Positions 7,948-25,559 of a stretch of DNA of 57,039 bases are shown here, in pieces. A program made the position numbers and the translations under genes. Position 1 is the first letter of the stretch; each line of letters opens with the position of its first letter. The notes beneath the pieces are model-generated. The model was given only the letters and a program-made list of their open reading frames with translations. It made no database searches and was not told the DNA's origin. The stretch comes from Streptosporangiales bacterium (GTDB taxonomy: Bacteria; Actinomycetota; Actinomycetes; Streptosporangiales; Streptosporangiaceae): contig WHSL01000008.1 of NCBI GenBank assembly GCA_009380095.1, positions 1 through 57,039 on the forward strand. Reading direction: 5' to 3'.

Positions 7948-9459
7948 ATGCGGGCGGCGCATGTCGTCGAGGCGGTTCGTGGGGCCGAGGCCGTGTTGAT
8001 GGCGCGGCTGCCCGAGGGTGGGCTCATGGCACGTGCCGCGGCCGGGCTCGCCGCGCGGTGTGCGGGCCTGCTGCCGCGGGTGTACGGGTCCCGGGTGGTG
8101 CTGCTGGTCGGTGGCGGGGACAACGGGGGTGACGCGCTCTACGCGGGAGCCCGGCTCGCTCGCCGCGGTGCGCGGGTGCACGCGCTGCTCGCCGGGGCGA
8201 AAGCGCACGTGGGTGGGCTTGCCACCCTGCGTGCTGCGGGTGGCCGCGTGATCTCCGCGAGTGATCCCGGCGGGGATGGTTTGGCGGATCCGGAGATCGT
8301 TGGGGCGGTGATCGGTGAGGCCGATCTCGTTGTGGACGGCTTGCTCGGGATCGGGGGGCGGGGTGGGTTGCGGCCGGCGTACGCGGACCTTGCCGTGCGG
8401 GCGAACGACGCGAGCGGGACGGTCGTCGCGGTGGATCTGCCGAGTGGGGTGGACGCGGACACCGGGCGGGTGGACGGTACGGCGGTGCGCGCGGACGTGA
8501 CCGTCACATTCGGTACGTACAAGCCGGGGTTGCTGGTCGACCCCGGGGCCGCGTACGCGGGTGTTGTGGACCTCGTGGACATCGGGCTGGATCCGTTGCT
8601 GCCCGACCCGGATGTGGTGGCGCCTCAGGCCGGGGACGTGGCCGGTGTGCTGGCGGCGCCCGGGCCGGAGTCCGACAAGTATCGGCGTGGTGTGCTCGGT
8701 GTGGTCGCCGGGGGGGCGCGGTTCGCCGGTGCGGCCGTGCTCGCCGTGGGCGGCGCGGTGCGGGCCGGGGCCGGCATGGTGCGGTTCGCCGGTGTCGAGC
8801 GGGTGACGGCGGGGGTTCGGGAGCGCTGGCCGGAGGCGGTGACCACGGTCGTCGAGTACGGCGACGCGGACGCGGTGCTCGGGGCGGGGCGGGTGCAGGC
8901 GTGGCTGGCGGGGCCCGGCATGGGGACCGACGACGGGGCCGCGCGGGTGCTCGCCGGGGTACTCGGCACCGAGCTTCCGGTGCTCGTCGACGCGGATGGG
9001 TTGACGCTGCTGGCCGCGCGGCCGGAGCTCGTCGTGGATCGCGCGTACCCGACGCTGCTCACCCCGCACGCGGGCGAGCTGTCCCGGTTGTTGGACGGGG
9101 TGGGCGAGTCCGCCGGCCGGGCCGCGATCGAGGGGGACCGGTTGCGCCACGCCCGGCTTGCCGCCGAGCGGTACGGCTGCACGGTGCTGCTCAAGGGGTC
9201 GACGACGGTGATCGCCGAGCCGGATCGGATCACCCGGGTGAATCCGACCGGTACGCCGTGGCTGGCCACGGCCGGGACCGGTGACGTGCTGTCGGGCATC
9301 GCGGGGGCGTTGCTCTCCGCGGGGCTCTCCACGTTCGACGCCGCGGTCGCGGGGGCGTACCTGCATGGCCTCGCCGCGCGGCTGGCCGCCGACGGTTCGC
9401 CCATCTCCGCCGGCGATCTTCTCGACACCCTTCACGCGGCCTTCCGTACGGTCGCCTGA
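7948..9459 (+). CDS. nnr: bifunctional NAD(P)H-hydrate epimerase / ADP-dependent dehydratase
   Basis: 503 residues. It repairs hydrated NADH and NADPH. The N-terminal YjeF_N epimerase domain (about 1-205) shows VGGGDNGGDALYAGA near 52 and DLPSGVDADTG near 165. The C-terminal carbohydrate-kinase-like dehydratase (about 225-500) shows LTPHAGELSRL, LKGSTTVI and the nucleotide loop TAGTGDVLSGI near 448. Both domains look complete. The ATG is one base past the acpS stop. The gene ends 8 bases from the convergent PrsW-like gene. Confidence 0.93.
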   Translation: MRAAHVVEAVRGAEAVLMARLPEGGLMARAAAGLAARCAGLLPRVYGSRVVLLVGGGDNGGDALYAGARLARRGARVHALLAGAKAHVGGLATLRAAGGRVISASDPGGDGLADPEIVGAVIGEADLVVDGLLGIGGRGGLRPAYADLAVRANDASGTVVAVDLPSGVDADTGRVDGTAVRADVTVTFGTYKPGLLVDPGAAYAGVVDLVDIGLDPLLPDPDVVAPQAGDVAGVLAAPGPESDKYRRGVLGVVAGGARFAGAAVLAVGGAVRAGAGMVRFAGVERVTAGVRERWPEAVTTVVEYGDADAVLGAGRVQAWLAGPGMGTDDGAARVLAGVLGTELPVLVDADGLTLLAARPELVVDRAYPTLLTPHAGELSRLLDGVGESAGRAAIEGDRLRHARLAAERYGCTVLLKGSTTVIAEPDRITRVNPTGTPWLATAGTGDVLSGIAGALLSAGLSTFDAAVAGAYLHGLAARLAADGSPISAGDLLDTLHAAFRTVA

Positions 9460-9467
9460 CGGCGCGT

Positions 9468-11786
9468 TCAGGCGCGGCGGCGGCGTCCTCGGGGGCGGCC
9501 GTGGCGGCGGCGTCGCGGGGGTTCGGGGCCGGGGTCCTCGGGTTCCGGTGGCGGAGGGTCGGGGGGTGGCGGGTCGCCGTCGTACAGGGTTGCGATCAAG
9601 GACCGTGGTACGAGGCCGCCGAGCAGGCCGAGCAGCAGATGGCCGAGCTGGCCGGGAGCGAGCAGCCCGAGTACGCCGAGGATCGCCGCCCATGGATCGT
9701 GCAGGAAACGTTCCGAGGTCGGCACGTCGTGGGGCGTGGCCCAGCCGGTGCAGAGCAGCAGTAGCACCGACACCGTGGCGGCGAGCACCACGTTCTGCCC
9801 CGTCGGGCTGAATCCCTGCAGCCACCGGCCGATGTCGTCGGCCAGCAGCGGCAGGTACGCCACCGGCCCGCCGGACGAATCGGACGCGGCCGGCCAGGAC
9901 GGCGCGGGCCAGGACGCCGCCGGCCCTGAGGGGCCGCGCCAGGCGAAGGCGGACGCCGCGGCCGCCAGGGGCACGAGGACGAGCGCGGCGGCGGCCCCCG
10001 GCAGCATCGTCGCCACCAGCCATTCGCGGGCGCGCCAGAGGTCGGCGCGGGGCGGGGCGTCGCGCCGGGGACGGCCACGCGCCCGGTACGCCCCCATCCC
10101 GATCTCCCTGCGTTCGCGGAGCAGACGCAGCGCCACGACCAGCGTGGCGGGCCCGCGCGCCGCCGCCACCAGCGCGACGACGACCTCGTGCGCCAGCTCC
10201 GCCAGGGTCAGCGCGAGCGAGGCGGGCAGACCGGCGCGTACTCGGGCGAGACGCTGGAATGTGGACGATATGTCCGAAGGGATCGCCGCCCGCCGCTGGA
10301 TGGCCCGCCCGCGCGCCCGCCGCGCCAGCCCGGCCCACGGCGAGCTGCCGGGCAGCGGCGGCACCACGTCGTCGACCGTACGGGCCAGGTGGTGGTCGAG
10401 CACGATCCCCGCCACCAGGAAGAGCAGGAGCAGCCAGGCCACGGACCGCCCGGCCCCGGTCGCGTCGTACACGGCCGCGGTGACCGGGGTGAGCCGCAGC
10501 CCGGACGCCGCGGCGTTCAGCGCGACGTGGTCGAGCGCGGCGAGGCCGAGTGCGAGCGGCGGCAGCAGCCAGAGCTTGTAGCCGAGCCGCCGCCGTCCCA
10601 CCACGGCGAGCCCGACCGCCCCGCCGACGAGCCCGGTCGTGATCGCGTGCCCGGCGAAGTACGTGCCGGCGAACGCGGTCGCCCCGGGCAGCGCCCAGGG
10701 CGCGTACGACGCCGCCGGCGGGAGCACCGCCCCGGTCACCGCGGCGGCCGCGCCCTCGGCGAGCTGGAACCCGGCCCCCGCGGCGACGCCGAGCAGCAGG
10801 TAGTCCACCGCCGCGAAGCGGGCGAACCGGCGCCGCGCGAACAGCCGGAACAGCAGCAGCGGCGCGAGCTTGCCCATCTCCTCTACGGGCACGCCGACGT
10901 ACACGGCGGTGAACCGGTCGGTGACCGGCAGGCCCAGGCCGCTGGCGAGCGCGACCTCGGCGAGCCCGATGGCGGGGGCGATCGCGGCGCCGAGGGCCAC
11001 CATCCGGAGCAGTACGGAGAACGCGACGGTACGGGACCGCGCCAGCGTCGCGGCCATCAGCACCAGCCAGGCCAGCCCGAGCAGTACCGGAGGCGCCGCG
11101 CCGAACCCGGGGGCGAGGAACAGCCCGGAGGCGATCAGGATGACCATCGCCCAGGTCGCGGCGGACCGCAGCACCCGCAGTACGGCGACGCCGCCGGGCG
11201 CCTGGTCGCGCAGCCGGGCGGCGGTGGCGACGAGCCGTTCCGCCGCGTCCGGCCGGGGCAGCCGGGGGGTGCGGGCGTGTCGCGCGCCGGGCTCCAGGCA
11301 GCCGTACCGGATGGCGGTCTGGATCAGTGAGGTGTCCTGCCGGTCCAGCGCGTGCTCGGCGAACGCCGCGCGGGCGCGCCCCACGTCCGGGCCGATGAGC
11401 GCGCGCAGGAACGGTACGGGCCCGGCCGCCACGGTCAGCTCGGACGCGGTGACCAGAACCGCGCCGGACAGGTCCTCCAGCGCGACGAGGAAGTCGGTGG
11501 GACGCTGCCCCCAGCCGCGGATCAGGTCCACCAGGTCCTCGGTGTCCGGCACCATCGCTACGACGGGGTCGTAGGCGTACTCGGCGCGCGTACGGGCCAC
11601 CAGGATCCGCTCGGCGCCCATCTCGCGGGCACCCTCGACGATCCCGTGCACCAGCGCCACGTCCCGCGCCGGCAGGTACGGGACGATCGTCTTCCCGCCC
11701 TCGGACAGCCAGCCCCGGTCGAACTCGGTCGCGTCCGCGCACAGTCGCAGCACGAGATCGCGGGTGAGCATCGCCTGCGGGTCCAT
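9468..11786 (-). CDS. PrsW-type intramembrane protease with extra N- and C-terminal domains
   Basis: 772 residues. The core (about 210-460) has many membrane segments and the PrsW/CAAX-protease motifs: EEMGK at 302-306, FQLAE at 340-344, and membrane His at about 380 and 420. In characterised PrsW, such residues cleave a membrane anti-sigma factor; whether this protein is active is inference. About 200 N-terminal residues form a soluble domain I do not recognise. The C-terminal 300 residues hold another basic soluble stretch, three or four membrane segments and a Pro- then Arg-rich tail. Ordinary PrsW proteins are 200-400 residues. The start is an ATG with GGGGAG about 4 bases upstream. Confidence 0.8.
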   Translation of the reverse strand: MDPQAMLTRDLVLRLCADATEFDRGWLSEGGKTIVPYLPARDVALVHGIVEGAREMGAERILVARTRAEYAYDPVVAMVPDTEDLVDLIRGWGQRPTDFLVALEDLSGAVLVTASELTVAAGPVPFLRALIGPDVGRARAAFAEHALDRQDTSLIQTAIRYGCLEPGARHARTPRLPRPDAAERLVATAARLRDQAPGGVAVLRVLRSAATWAMVILIASGLFLAPGFGAAPPVLLGLAWLVLMAATLARSRTVAFSVLLRMVALGAAIAPAIGLAEVALASGLGLPVTDRFTAVYVGVPVEEMGKLAPLLLFRLFARRRFARFAAVDYLLLGVAAGAGFQLAEGAAAAVTGAVLPPAASYAPWALPGATAFAGTYFAGHAITTGLVGGAVGLAVVGRRRLGYKLWLLPPLALGLAALDHVALNAAASGLRLTPVTAAVYDATGAGRSVAWLLLLFLVAGIVLDHHLARTVDDVVPPLPGSSPWAGLARRARGRAIQRRAAIPSDISSTFQRLARVRAGLPASLALTLAELAHEVVVALVAAARGPATLVVALRLLRERREIGMGAYRARGRPRRDAPPRADLWRAREWLVATMLPGAAAALVLVPLAAAASAFAWRGPSGPAASWPAPSWPAASDSSGGPVAYLPLLADDIGRWLQGFSPTGQNVVLAATVSVLLLLCTGWATPHDVPTSERFLHDPWAAILGVLGLLAPGQLGHLLLGLLGGLVPRSLIATLYDGDPPPPDPPPPEPEDPGPEPPRRRRHGRPRGRRRRA

Positions 11787-11832: not shown

Positions 11833-11980
11833 CCACCGGAGAAACAGTTCCAATCCCCTCCAGCCGTCCGCTTCCGGGCAAGTCACCTTCGTCACTCCGG
11901 TAACGGGCCCGGCCGGGGCAGGCCCGGCTCCTGCCACGGGAGTGCCCGCACAACCTGTCGCGGCTGCCACACTTGGAGTC

Positions 11981-13117
11981 ATGGAGACTCTCGCGGAGGC
12001 ACGCGTCGACCTGGCCGCGGTGCGGGCCAACGTCGCCACGCTCGGCGAGCACGCCCCCGGCGCGCAGGTGCTGGCGGCGGTCAAGGCCGACGGCTACGGG
12101 CACGGCATGGTCCAGGTCGCCCGCGCGGCCCTGCAGGGCGGCGCGACCTGGCTCGGCTGTGCGTACGTGGAGGAGGCGCTGGCGCTCCGCGCGGCCGGCA
12201 TCGGGGCCCGGGTGCTCGCCTGGATCGTGCCGCCGGGCCAGCCGCTGACCGCCGCGCTCCGCGCGGGTGTGGACCTCGCCGTGGGCGCCCGCTGGCTGGT
12301 GGACGACATCGCCGCGGCGGCGCGGGAGGCCGGCCGCCCGGCCCGGGTGCACCTCAAGGCCGACACGGGCCTCAGCCGCGGCGGCGCGACCCCGGCGGAG
12401 TGGGCCCCGCTGGTGGACGCGGCGCTGGCCGCGCAGGCCGAGGGCTTGATCGACGTGGTCGGCGTGATGTCCCACCTGGCCAGGGCGGACGAGCCCGGCG
12501 ACCCTTCCATCGCCGCGCAGATCGGGCACTTCCGCGACGCGGTCGAGCTGGCCGAGAAGGCCGGCGTGCGGCCCGAGGTGCGCCACCTCTGCAACTCGGC
12601 CGGCACGCTGAGCCTCCCCGAGGCCCACTTCGACCTGGTCCGCCCCGGCATCTCGGTGTACGGGCTGTCCCCGTTCGCGCCGACCGAGCTGGCGCGGCCG
12701 GAGGCGTACGGGCTGCGCCCCGCCATGACGCTGAGCGCCCAGGTCGCGATGGTGAAACGGGTTCCGGAGGGTAGCGGGGTGTCCTATGGGCACCGCTACG
12801 TCACGGGCCGGGAGAGCACGCTCGCGCTCATCCCGGTGGGATACGGGGACGGCATCCCCCGTGCCGCCACCAACACCGCCGACGTGCTGCTGGCCGGCCG
12901 GCGCCGGCGCATCGCGGGCACGGTGTGCATGGACCAGTTCGTGCTCGACGTGGGCGACGACGACGTCCGCGCCGGAGACCGGGCCGTGCTGTTCGGCCCG
13001 GGTGACCACGGCGAACCCACCGCCCAGGACTGGGCGGCCGCGCTCGGCACGATCTCATGGGAGATCGTCACCCGGGTCGGCGCCCGCGTCCCCCGCGTCT
13101 ATGAGGGATCCGTTTGA
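11981..13117 (+). CDS. alr: alanine racemase
   Basis: 378 residues. This PLP enzyme makes D-alanine for peptidoglycan. The PLP lysine is in AVKADGYGHG near residue 34. The catalytic Tyr is in SGVSYGHRY near 265, and the C-terminal domain has GTVCMDQF. The ATG at 11981 is preferred over a GTG 39 bases upstream because it begins the conserved N-terminus, and a weak -10-like CACACT ends 7 bases before it. The stop overlaps the TTG start of the hydrolase gene. The order alr-hydrolase-tsaEB-rimI-tsaD is conserved in actinobacteria. Confidence 0.95.
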   Translation: METLAEARVDLAAVRANVATLGEHAPGAQVLAAVKADGYGHGMVQVARAALQGGATWLGCAYVEEALALRAAGIGARVLAWIVPPGQPLTAALRAGVDLAVGARWLVDDIAAAAREAGRPARVHLKADTGLSRGGATPAEWAPLVDAALAAQAEGLIDVVGVMSHLARADEPGDPSIAAQIGHFRDAVELAEKAGVRPEVRHLCNSAGTLSLPEAHFDLVRPGISVYGLSPFAPTELARPEAYGLRPAMTLSAQVAMVKRVPEGSGVSYGHRYVTGRESTLALIPVGYGDGIPRAATNTADVLLAGRRRRIAGTVCMDQFVLDVGDDDVRAGDRAVLFGPGDHGEPTAQDWAAALGTISWEIVTRVGARVPRVYEGSV

Positions 13118-23711: not shown

Positions 23712-24027
23712 TCTCTTCGCATCGACGGAGAGCGACCGATTGATGACCGTACGTCATAATTTCAACCACTTCCGGTCCCGCTCGGAACCGGCAGTATTGC
23801 TCTCCGATTTCCACCCCGGACTGACTGTGACGGCGGGGAAGGAGATCGCCGAACCGCATTGAGCTGGTCTTTCGCGGCGCAGCGTGGGCACTTCGTCGCT
23901 TTGGGTGAGGGAGAAAACGCGCTCTGTGTCCCGTTCCAGGCAGAGAGCGGTATGCCATGATCCAAGCGGCACCGTGACCATTCCGTTGCCTTTCCCGGGC
24001 AAGACACGGGCTGTCCGCCCCGGCATC
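23712..24027 (+). other. 316-base region upstream of the sigma factor gene, lower G+C
   Basis: No convincing gene lies here; short frames have non-coding composition. The stretch is visibly richer in A and T than its surroundings (for example CATAATTTCAACC near 23,753-23,765 and GAGGGAGAAAACGC near 23,904). It probably carries the control region of the sigma factor gene. No operator was identified. In M. tuberculosis whiB3 and another small gene lie between groEL1 and sigD; neither is present here. Confidence 0.45.
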
Positions 24028-24663
24028 ATGCTCTACGTGACGGAGGGAAGCATCGCCGACGCGTTCCCCGCGGGGTCCCCACCCGGTGAGACGGCGCATG
24101 CCGACGAGGGGGATCTTCGGGGTCTGACCGATCTGGCGGCCCGGGGTGACCGTGCGGCGATCGAATCGCTCATCGAGGCGATCCGCCCCATGGTGGTGCG
24201 GTACTGCCGCGCCCGGCTGGGGCGGGTTTCGGGCCACTACCACATCGCCGACGATGTGGCCCAGGAGGTCTGCATCGCGGTCCTGGCCGCGCTGCCCCGG
24301 TATCGGGACATCGGCCGGCCGTTCGCCTCGTTCGTGTTCGGCATCGCGTCCCACAAGGTCGCCGACGCGCTGCGCAGCTCGGTACGGGCCGCCGTGCCCA
24401 CCGAGGAGCTCCCCGACGGCCCGGATGACCGCCCGGGTCCCGAGGAGACCGTCGTGCGGTACGTCGAGGCGGAACATGCCAGGGCGCTGCTGTCACGTCT
24501 CCCGGAAATCCAGCGGGAGTTGCTCGTTCTCCGGGTGGTGGCGGGTCTTTCCGCCGAGGAGACGGGTAACGTACTGGGTATGTCAGCGGGGGCCGTGCGT
24601 GTGGCGCAGCACCGGGCTTTGGCGCGGTTGCGGGCCATGGCCGTCGAGGAGCAGATTGCGTGA
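24028..24663 (+). CDS. sigD: ECF-like sigma factor, SigD/ShbA type
   Basis: 211 residues. Region 2 runs from about 40 to 110 ([19 protein letters not shown] in pieces, then [18 protein letters not shown], the -10-binding helix) and region 4 from about 150 to 205 ([21 protein letters not shown], then a helix-turn-helix). Its place between groEL1 and guaB, and the linked anti-sigma gene, match M. tuberculosis sigD and the ShbA group of Streptomyces. The start is uncertain: ATG 24028 has no ribosome site, and GTG 24037 is an alternative. GTGA overlap couples it to the next gene. Confidence 0.88.
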
Positions 24664-25559
24664 CGGGCAGTCGTCCATTGAAGCTGGTCCATGTCGATGA
24701 CGTTCAGCGCACCGACGCCGCGATCGAGGAGTTGGCCTCCCGGCGCGGCGAGGCCGGTCGTATCTCCGACCCTGCGCTGTCGATCCTCGATGAACTCATC
24801 GCCGACGTAGACGAGCGGGAACCGGTCCTGCGCGCCGTCGGCTCGCAAGGCAGCGCCAGGCGGACCCGCCGCAGCCGCCGCGGCCGGTTCATCGCCGCGC
24901 TCGGCATCGGCGTCGTGATCGCCGGCGGCTCCACGGGGGTGGCGGTCGCGGGCTCGCAGTTCCTGGGCGACCTTCAGCCGCCGCGGGTGGAGAGCATCCA
25001 CAAGGGCGGCGACGACGAGGAGAACGAGAAGAGCTCCCGGGAGATCGGGGCCGGCGTGGTGCCGCCCATCGGCGGCGCGAACGGCGAGCGCCCGCCGCAG
25101 GTGTCGCGGCAACGCTCCGACGCCCTGGAGGAGGCGCGGCGCCGGGCCGAGCGGGCCGAGGGCGCTCCCGCGGAGGTGCCGTCGGCCGAGGGCAAGGGCC
25201 TGGACAAGAAGGTCGACCGGTCCGCCAAGGGCGGCAAGCTCGGCGCCGACGTGGACACCGGGCTCGACGCGGACACTGGCACCGACACCGGTACGGACCC
25301 CGACACCGGCACCGATTCGGACACCGGCACGGACTTCGACACCGGCACCGACTCCAAGGGCTCCGGCTCGGACAAGGGCCGCGGCCACCAGTCCGCCGAC
25401 CCCGGCGGCACGACCACCGACCCCGGCGAGACTCCAGACTCCGGCACCCCCGAGGACTCCACGACCTCCGACGACGGGACCACCGACGACGGGACCTCCG
25501 ACGGAACCTCCACCTCCGCCGAGTTCAGCACCGGCGACACCGTCGGTCTCGGAGGGTGA
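24660..25559 (+). CDS. rsdA: membrane anti-sigma factor, RsdA-like
   Basis: 299 residues. The cytoplasmic N-terminus (1-85) has [14 protein letters not shown] and a DELIADVDE helix, resembling the SigD-binding region of RsdA. One membrane helix spans about 82-103 after a SRRGRF basic turn. The outside part (about 105-299) is low-complexity: acidic, with DTGTD-type repeats coded at about 25,254-25,355 and a Thr/Asp/Ser-rich tail. Length and place match Rv3413c-type proteins. Regulated proteolysis releasing the sigma factor is known for such systems. The PrsW-like protease at 9.5 kb is a possible partner by inference only. Confidence 0.82.

What the first reader, a model, noticed from the sequence alone, without database searches (positions are those of the whole stretch)
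9468..11786. PrsW-type intramembrane protease fused to unrecognised N- and C-terminal domains
The EExxK, FxxxE and membrane His motifs of PrsW are all present (residues 302-306, 340-344, 380, 420) in a protein two to three times the usual size. The first 200 residues form a soluble domain that I cannot assign, and a second soluble and membrane module follows the protease core. An anti-sigma factor with one membrane helix (RsdA-like) is encoded 13 kb away and could be a substrate, but that link is only inference.
Basis: partly seen in the sequence, partly recalled or inferred. Interest (0 to 1): 0.6.

Follow-up and report, generated by a model that had tools for sequence, protein, structure and literature searches.

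The report
Toxin-carrier protease fused to immunity domain
The gene makes a membrane-embedded protease that looks like the delivery half of a bacterial toxin with the toxin removed and a piece of the matching antidote protein joined to its front; related actinobacteria keep it, which suggests a weapon turned into something the cell uses.

Summary
The ORF is real (772 aa, minus strand) and has all the PrsW motifs. Its flanks can now be placed. Residues 1-176 are homologous to the N-terminal domain of colicin-D-type immunity proteins: a profile of five such proteins, none a fusion, finds them at E=1.5e-25; profile-profile comparison gives 99.8%. Three of those five genes directly follow a Colicin_D toxin gene. 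Residues ~471-735 are the carrier segment of PrsW polymorphic toxins: in G037, G021 and G008 the same PrsW plus carrier continues into Colicin_D, WHH/Colicin-DNase and an unassigned tail. The window protein and 47 of 47 full-length named relatives (Nocardiopsis, Thermobifida and others) stop where the toxin would begin. In G037 the same nnr-alr locus holds a PrsW-Colicin_D toxin followed by an N-domain/ColD-immunity gene. The PrsW tree puts the fusions inside the toxin-carrier clade. Catalytic residues are nearly invariant and dN/dS is low (0.18-0.30). Best reading: a toxin/immunity locus converted into a toxin-less, conserved intramembrane protease with an immunity-derived cytosolic domain. 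What it cuts is unknown; the RsdA link has no support. PrsW toxins are known (Zhang 2012); this derivative was not found in the papers searched.

The parts
9468..11786 (-). Whole ORF, 772 aa: immunity-derived N-domain + PrsW-type protease + toxin-carrier segment, no toxin
   Evidence: orthologs
11259..11786 (-). Residues 1-176: N-domain homologous to the N-terminal domain of ColD-type immunity proteins; AF2 model pLDDT 91
10377..11174 (-). Residues 205-470: PrsW-type membrane protease core, about 8 predicted long helices
10869..10883 (-). EEMGK motif (residues 302-306)
10755..10769 (-). FQLAE motif (residues 340-344)
10647..10649 (-). Membrane His380
10515..10529 (-). HVALN motif (residues 420-424)
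9582..10376 (-). Residues 471-735: carrier segment shared with PrsW polymorphic toxins (helical soluble part, then hydrophobic helices)
9582..9704 (-). Residues 695-735: FLxxP...APGQ segment, which in the toxin carriers lies just before the C-terminal tail
9471..9581 (-). Residues 736-772: Pro/Arg-rich tail of the window protein where a toxin would be; 45 of 48 sequences have at most 36 residues after APGQ, the window has 59
7948..9459 (+). nnr (NAD(P)HX epimerase/dehydratase; name from sequence and recall), syntenic marker
11942..13117 (+). alr (alanine racemase; name from sequence and recall), syntenic marker

Best explanation
A domesticated derivative of a PrsW-type polymorphic toxin/immunity locus. 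Shown by sequence: a PrsW protease core with intact motifs, joined at the front to the N-terminal domain of ColD-type immunity proteins and followed by the carrier segment that in relatives leads into a toxin, with no toxin. Inferred: an ancestor at the nnr-alr locus resembled G037 (PrsW-ColD toxin, then N-domain/ImmD gene); the toxin domain and the ImmD half were lost and the immunity N-domain was joined to PrsW, for example by deletion between tandem copies. Proposed mechanism, inferred: both flanks are cytosolic, the immunity-derived N-domain binds a protein partner and brings it to, or gates, an active intramembrane protease. The partner is unknown.
For: Profile A5, built from the five immunity proteins alone, finds the window N-domain at E=1.5e-25, 91.5 bits (the five had been found with a profile of the fusions, so this is a reverse check); hhalign of fusion N-domains against A5 gives 99.8%, E=1.5e-27. 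All 5 non-fusion N-domain proteins found in the order align over a ColD-immunity-like C-domain, and in 3 of 5 the homology begins within 25 nt of the end of a Colicin_D toxin gene. The carrier-segment profile hits the same 72 genomes that have the N-domain fusion, plus three toxin carriers and one weak hit. No toxin in 47 of 47 full-length named relatives, judged by length and sequence end; Pfam on 29 of them including the window finds none. The nnr-alr locus is the same in G037. Tree: fusions one clade (99), fusions + G037 toxin 88, fusions + three toxin carriers against 20 other PrsW 100. Catalytic residues conserved. Median dN/dS N 0.18, PrsW 0.30, C 0.29.
Against: No function was tested. 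Only one genome (G037) shows the complete toxin/immunity pair at this locus, so the direction of change rests on one locus and a support of 88. The ImmD assignment is below the Pfam cut-off in 3 of 5 proteins (16.8-21.5 bits against 22) and absent in 2 of 5, and colicin D immunity is the best PDB match only at E=0.12. The N-domain fold has no clear structural match. 8 of 51 named loci show neither nnr nor alr, four of them with short flanks. In 4 of 72 genomes the two parts lie in different frames or contigs, and 3 of 51 named copies stop early.
Confidence: 0.6

Rival explanations
1. A signalling PrsW: an intramembrane protease with a regulatory sensor domain that cleaves an anti-sigma factor or another membrane protein. 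Its likeness to immunity proteins only reflects a shared binding domain.
For: PrsW fused to cytosolic signalling domains is described (Zhang 2012, PMC3482391, passage). The gene is single-copy, conserved and under purifying selection. The N-domain also occurs alone, in G536.
Against: The carrier segment and the tree place it with toxin carriers, apart from 20 other PrsW. All 5 non-fusion N-domain proteins found in the order are ColD-immunity-like. RsdA: none found in the own genome by PF16751.
Confidence: 0.3
2. A true polymorphic-toxin carrier held without a toxin, ready to receive toxin cassettes by recombination.
For: The carrier segment is kept right up to the pre-toxin APGQ motif; related carriers bear three different tails (and the L017 tail).
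Against: 47 of 47 full-length named relatives end without a toxin. At 13 loci inspected by eye I saw no obvious toxin or immunity cassette beside the gene (first 70 residues of rough gene calls, no family search). In the window nnr ends 8 nt from the stop codon.
Confidence: 0.08
3. A decaying remnant of a toxin locus without function.
For: Toxin lost; 3 of 51 named copies (L108, L112, L114) hit an early stop, and in G082 and G138 the gene is in pieces.
Against: Six motif residues invariant in 48 of 48; dN/dS well below 1 in all three regions; present in 19 genera of the order.
Confidence: 0.03

Closest known systems
PrsW-dependent polymorphic toxins (Zhang et al. 2012, PMC3482391)
   Same: Membrane PrsW core placed before a carrier segment; relatives G037 and G021 are such proteins with Pfam-recognised toxin domains, G008 with an unassigned tail.
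   Different: No C-terminal toxin, no separate immunity gene beside it, and an immunity-derived domain at the N-terminus.
Colicin D immunity proteins (ImmD, PF09204)
   Same: N-domain homologous to the N-terminal domain of Streptosporangiales ColD-type immunity proteins.
   Different: The ImmD half that blocks colicin D (role recalled) is absent; the domain sits on a membrane protease.
PrsW site-1 protease of Bacillus (PF13367; NCBIfam NF033739)
   Same: EExxK, FxxxE and two His motifs in hydrophobic helices; the family profile aligns with 11 canonical PrsW at 93.6%, E=2e-7.
   Different: About 1.8 times the size, extra modules on both sides, no NCBIfam match, a separate clade in the tree.

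Membership tests
PrsW protease superfamily (PF13367) | EExxK, FxxxE and two membrane His motifs | tested here: met
PrsW protease superfamily (PF13367) | Score over the curated Pfam cut-off | tested here: met
   40.4 against 23.5 bits in the six-frame genome search; hmmscan listed none for the window and PF13367 for 9 of 29 family members
PrsW protease superfamily (PF13367) | Motif residues inside membrane helices | tested here: met
   AF2 model, and hydropathy; prediction only
PrsW equivalog (NCBIfam NF033739) | Match over NCBI's cut-off | tested here: not met
   no match for the window or two relatives
PrsW site-1 protease of anti-sigma factors | Cleaves an anti-sigma factor | not testable with these tools
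   no assay; RsdA not found in the own genome by PF16751
PrsW polymorphic toxins | PrsW core plus the carrier segment | tested here: met
PrsW polymorphic toxins | C-terminal toxin domain | tested here: not met
   window and 47 of 47 full-length named relatives end before it; Pfam on 29 of these 48 finds none
PrsW polymorphic toxins | Immunity gene adjacent | tested here: not met
   neighbours in the window are nnr and alr
Colicin D immunity (PF09204) | ImmD domain | tested here: not met
   no Pfam match in the window protein up to E 10; A5 aligns only over its N-terminal 7-159
Colicin D immunity (PF09204) | N-terminal domain of the Streptosporangiales immunity proteins | tested here: met

The most novel reading that the evidence does not exclude
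A protease-coupled immunity device: the immunity-derived N-domain recognises an incoming or endogenous polymorphic toxin or its carrier in the cytosol or at the membrane, and the PrsW core destroys it or signals its arrival. That would be immunity by proteolysis instead of by a stoichiometric inhibitor, built from a toxin's own delivery protease.
Probability: 0.2. Interest if true: 0.8.

Novelty: new variant of a known kind. Interest (0 to 1): 0.58.

Why it matters
It appears to be a case in which parts of both the weapon (PrsW carrier) and the antidote (immunity N-domain) of one conflict locus were joined, the toxin discarded, and the product kept in 72 of the 345 genomes (one per species) examined in its order. 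It places two modules that Pfam does not name, fits the proposal that PrsW is a toxin-carrier protease, and gives a defined starting point for asking whether immunity domains can steer proteolysis.

Tried and rejected
hmmscan (Pfam, NCBIfam) on the window protein gave nothing, as did Pfam on the N-domain alone and PADLOC on four proteins. A single-sequence scan of genome contigs found no relative; an alignment query found 51. Sequence search of the PDB with the fusion alignment gave 0 hits and with the immunity alignment five weak unrelated ones. Foldseek/VIA on the N-domain: the top Foldseek hit is the T6SS immunity protein PA0821 (7drg_B, E 5.5e-3, TM 0.35), which is not among the 50 VIA rows shown; the best VIA row is Z 6.2, KICSTOR. 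I draw no fold conclusion. Foldseek/VIA on the full model were uninformative. RsdA co-occurrence: no support, but PF16751 rang in none of 14 controls. Plasmid records: no match. The N-domain profile A4 over 296 genomes of the phylum: 2 hits, the window itself and one marginal with a stop inside. One member of the family alignment also matched PF10039 (DUF2275); not followed.

Considered and rejected: anti-sigma (RsdA) protease by proximity; toxin awaiting a cassette; decaying remnant (see rivals).

Rows dropped: the tree used 15 of 48 fusions, 3 toxin carriers and 20 of 21 other PrsW (L217 fell out, apparently because its motifs are spaced too far apart for the cutting rule). One search used 47 of 51 named relatives (L108, L112, L114 end early; L116 is cut by its contig). 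dN/dS used the 60 closest of 527 pairs in range, of 1128; the pairs are not independent. The full-length structure alignment used 28 of 51 named relatives, the N-domain one 31 of 51.

Full report
Observation. The ORF at 9468-11786 is on the minus strand, 772 aa, ATG to stop. The AlphaFold2 model (29 sequences, pLDDT 84.0, pTM 0.86) puts the motifs in or at the start of long helices that are hydrophobic. By the charge of the loops (my reading of the sequence, no topology program) both the N-domain and the segment after the core are cytosolic.

Distribution. The window protein matches in 10 of 60 genomes, its own included; of the 9 others 8 hold a full-length protein of the same architecture and the ninth is G037 (the 8 are L005-L012, aligned). 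A profile of the N-domain (A2) hits 77 of 345 genomes of the order. In 5 of these the hit is not a fusion (G037, G079, G354, G220, G180); the other 72, the window's included, are the same 72 by handle (compared by eye) in which the carrier-segment profile A3 finds this gene. In 68 of the 72 both hits lie in one open frame; in G082, G138, G143 and G158 they lie in different frames or contigs. A3 hits 74 of 345 genomes in all: these 72, G037, and one weak hit, G233 (E 3.6e-4); in G008 and G021 it also finds a second, toxin-type protein. The fusions fall in 19 genera. In 345 genomes drawn from the class no A3 hit lies outside the window's family. Named relatives: 51 loci, mainly Nocardiopsis, with Streptomonospora, Thermobifida, Allonocardiopsis, Marinactinospora, Murinocardiopsis and others. 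No plasmid match.

The N-domain comes from immunity proteins. The 5 non-fusion proteins all consist of this domain followed by a roughly 105-residue C-domain, and align throughout. Pfam Colicin_immun (PF09204) matches 3 of these 5 at 16.8-21.5 bits, just below the cut-off of 22; G079 and G037 have no PF09204 match. A profile of seven such C-domains, two of them from short proteins without the N-domain, has two colicin D immunity chains, 1tfk_B and 1v74_B, as the best of its 8 PDB matches, both at the weak E of 0.12. Context is stronger: in G037, G079 and G220 the homology begins, co-directional, within about 25 nt of the end of a gene whose product ends in a Colicin_D domain (PF11429, 28.3, 48.4 and 56.5 bits). 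The three carriers differ: PrsW; RHS-like with T7SS-like neighbours (by eye); RHS with HINT (Pfam). In G354 and G180 I saw no such toxin beside the gene. A profile of these five proteins alone (A5) finds the window N-domain at E=1.5e-25; 23 of its 28 hit genomes, of 394 of the class, are fusions, three others match only the immunity C-domain, one (G536) only the N-domain, and one is marginal. As the five were found with a profile of the fusions, this is a reverse check. hhalign of 32 fusion N-domains against A5 gives 99.8%, E=1.5e-27, over 151 columns. The isolated N-domain model has pLDDT 91.3, but no clear structural relative.

The C-module is the carrier segment of PrsW toxins. G037 P0002 is PrsW (54.7 bits) plus Colicin_D (28.3 bits); G021 P0004 is PrsW (39.0 bits) plus WHH (56.8 bits) and Colicin-DNase (43.2 bits), followed by a SUKH gene (SMI1_KNR4, 67.6 bits); the second G008 protein is PrsW (47.1 bits) plus a tail that Pfam does not name. 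All three share the segment after the core with the window protein, 29-35% identity. The fusions end soon after the APGQ motif: lengths are 716-783 aa, 45 of 48 have at most 36 residues after it, the others are the window (59), L066 (68) and L104 (38). Pfam on 29 of the 48 finds PF13367 in 9, DUF2275 in 1 and no toxin family.

Same locus. Among 51 named loci nnr is upstream in 39, alr downstream in 14, both in 10, either in 43; of the 8 with neither, four hold little flank. In G037 the order is glmS, acpS, nnr, PrsW-ColD toxin, N-domain immunity, another gene, alr. In the window the gene is inverted relative to nnr and alr.

Phylogeny and selection. IQ-TREE (LG+F+G4, 38 sequences, 255 columns): the fusions form one clade (99); fusions plus the G037 toxin 88; fusions plus all three toxin carriers against 20 other PrsW 100 (values read from the Newick string, since re-rooting shifted the printed labels). 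Rooted on the other PrsW, the fusions nest within toxin carriers. E302, E303, E344, H380, H420 and N424 are invariant in 48 of 48, K306 in 47. Median dN/dS over the 60 closest pairs is N 0.18, PrsW 0.30, carrier 0.29. So the protein looks functional and its N-domain is the most constrained part. The own genome has no Colicin_D match and no other A5 match, so the fusion does not seem to serve a ColD toxin of the same cell; of the 22 genomes searched for Colicin_D, 5 have it, two of them (G018, G080) fusion carriers.

Interpretation. Shown: architecture, homology of both flanks, absence of a toxin, synteny, conservation. Inferred: origin from a toxin/immunity pair by loss of both effector ends and fusion, and action as a protease steered by the immunity-derived domain. 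Not shown: substrate, proteolysis, topology.

Literature. Zhang et al. 2012 (PMC3482391; passages and table rows) describe PrsW as a release and export peptidase of polymorphic toxins and PrsW fusions with signalling domains. The part of their Tox-Colicin D row that I saw lists neither PrsW nor actinobacteria, so the G037 toxin may be a new combination relative to that table. Searches for 'PrsW' with 'polymorphic toxin', with 'intramembrane protease' (from 2012), with 'toxin' and 'immunity protein', and with 'Nocardiopsis' (listings and starts of abstracts) and one for colicin D immunity in actinobacterial polymorphic toxins (listing) showed by title or abstract no paper on a toxin-less PrsW/immunity-domain fusion; most subscription papers are not in that library. 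PMC9635880 was read in passages only.

Noticed in passing
L065:7611-10149 (G021): A second PrsW-type toxin with a WHH/Colicin-DNase tail, followed immediately by a SUKH immunity gene: a classic toxin/immunity pair in a genome that also has the toxin-less fusion.
   Followed up: partly
L017:685-2979 (G008): A second PrsW carrier with a C-terminal tail that Pfam does not name; it looks like a restriction-endonuclease-fold toxin by eye only.
   Followed up: no
L191 (G018), L192 (G080): Colicin_D toxins (HINT-like middle part by eye) with ImmD-like sequence beside them that lacks the N-domain, in genomes that also carry the fusion.
   Followed up: partly
L183:1474-2004: The N-domain as a stand-alone protein of 176 aa in another family of the class (G536); partner unknown.
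   Followed up: no
L108, L112, L114: Three named copies of the fusion hit an early stop although similarity goes on beyond it: sequencing error or broken copies.
   Followed up: no
window 9468-11786: hmmscan misses PF13367 here while the six-frame genome search scores it over the cut-off, so annotation by hmmscan alone would overlook such PrsW proteins (9 of 29 family members found).
   Followed up: partly
window 24660-25559: The putative RsdA-like anti-sigma ORF next to an ORF with sigma-70 regions 2 and 4 (23884-24663) matches no Pfam family; its identity rests on position and reading alone.
   Followed up: partly
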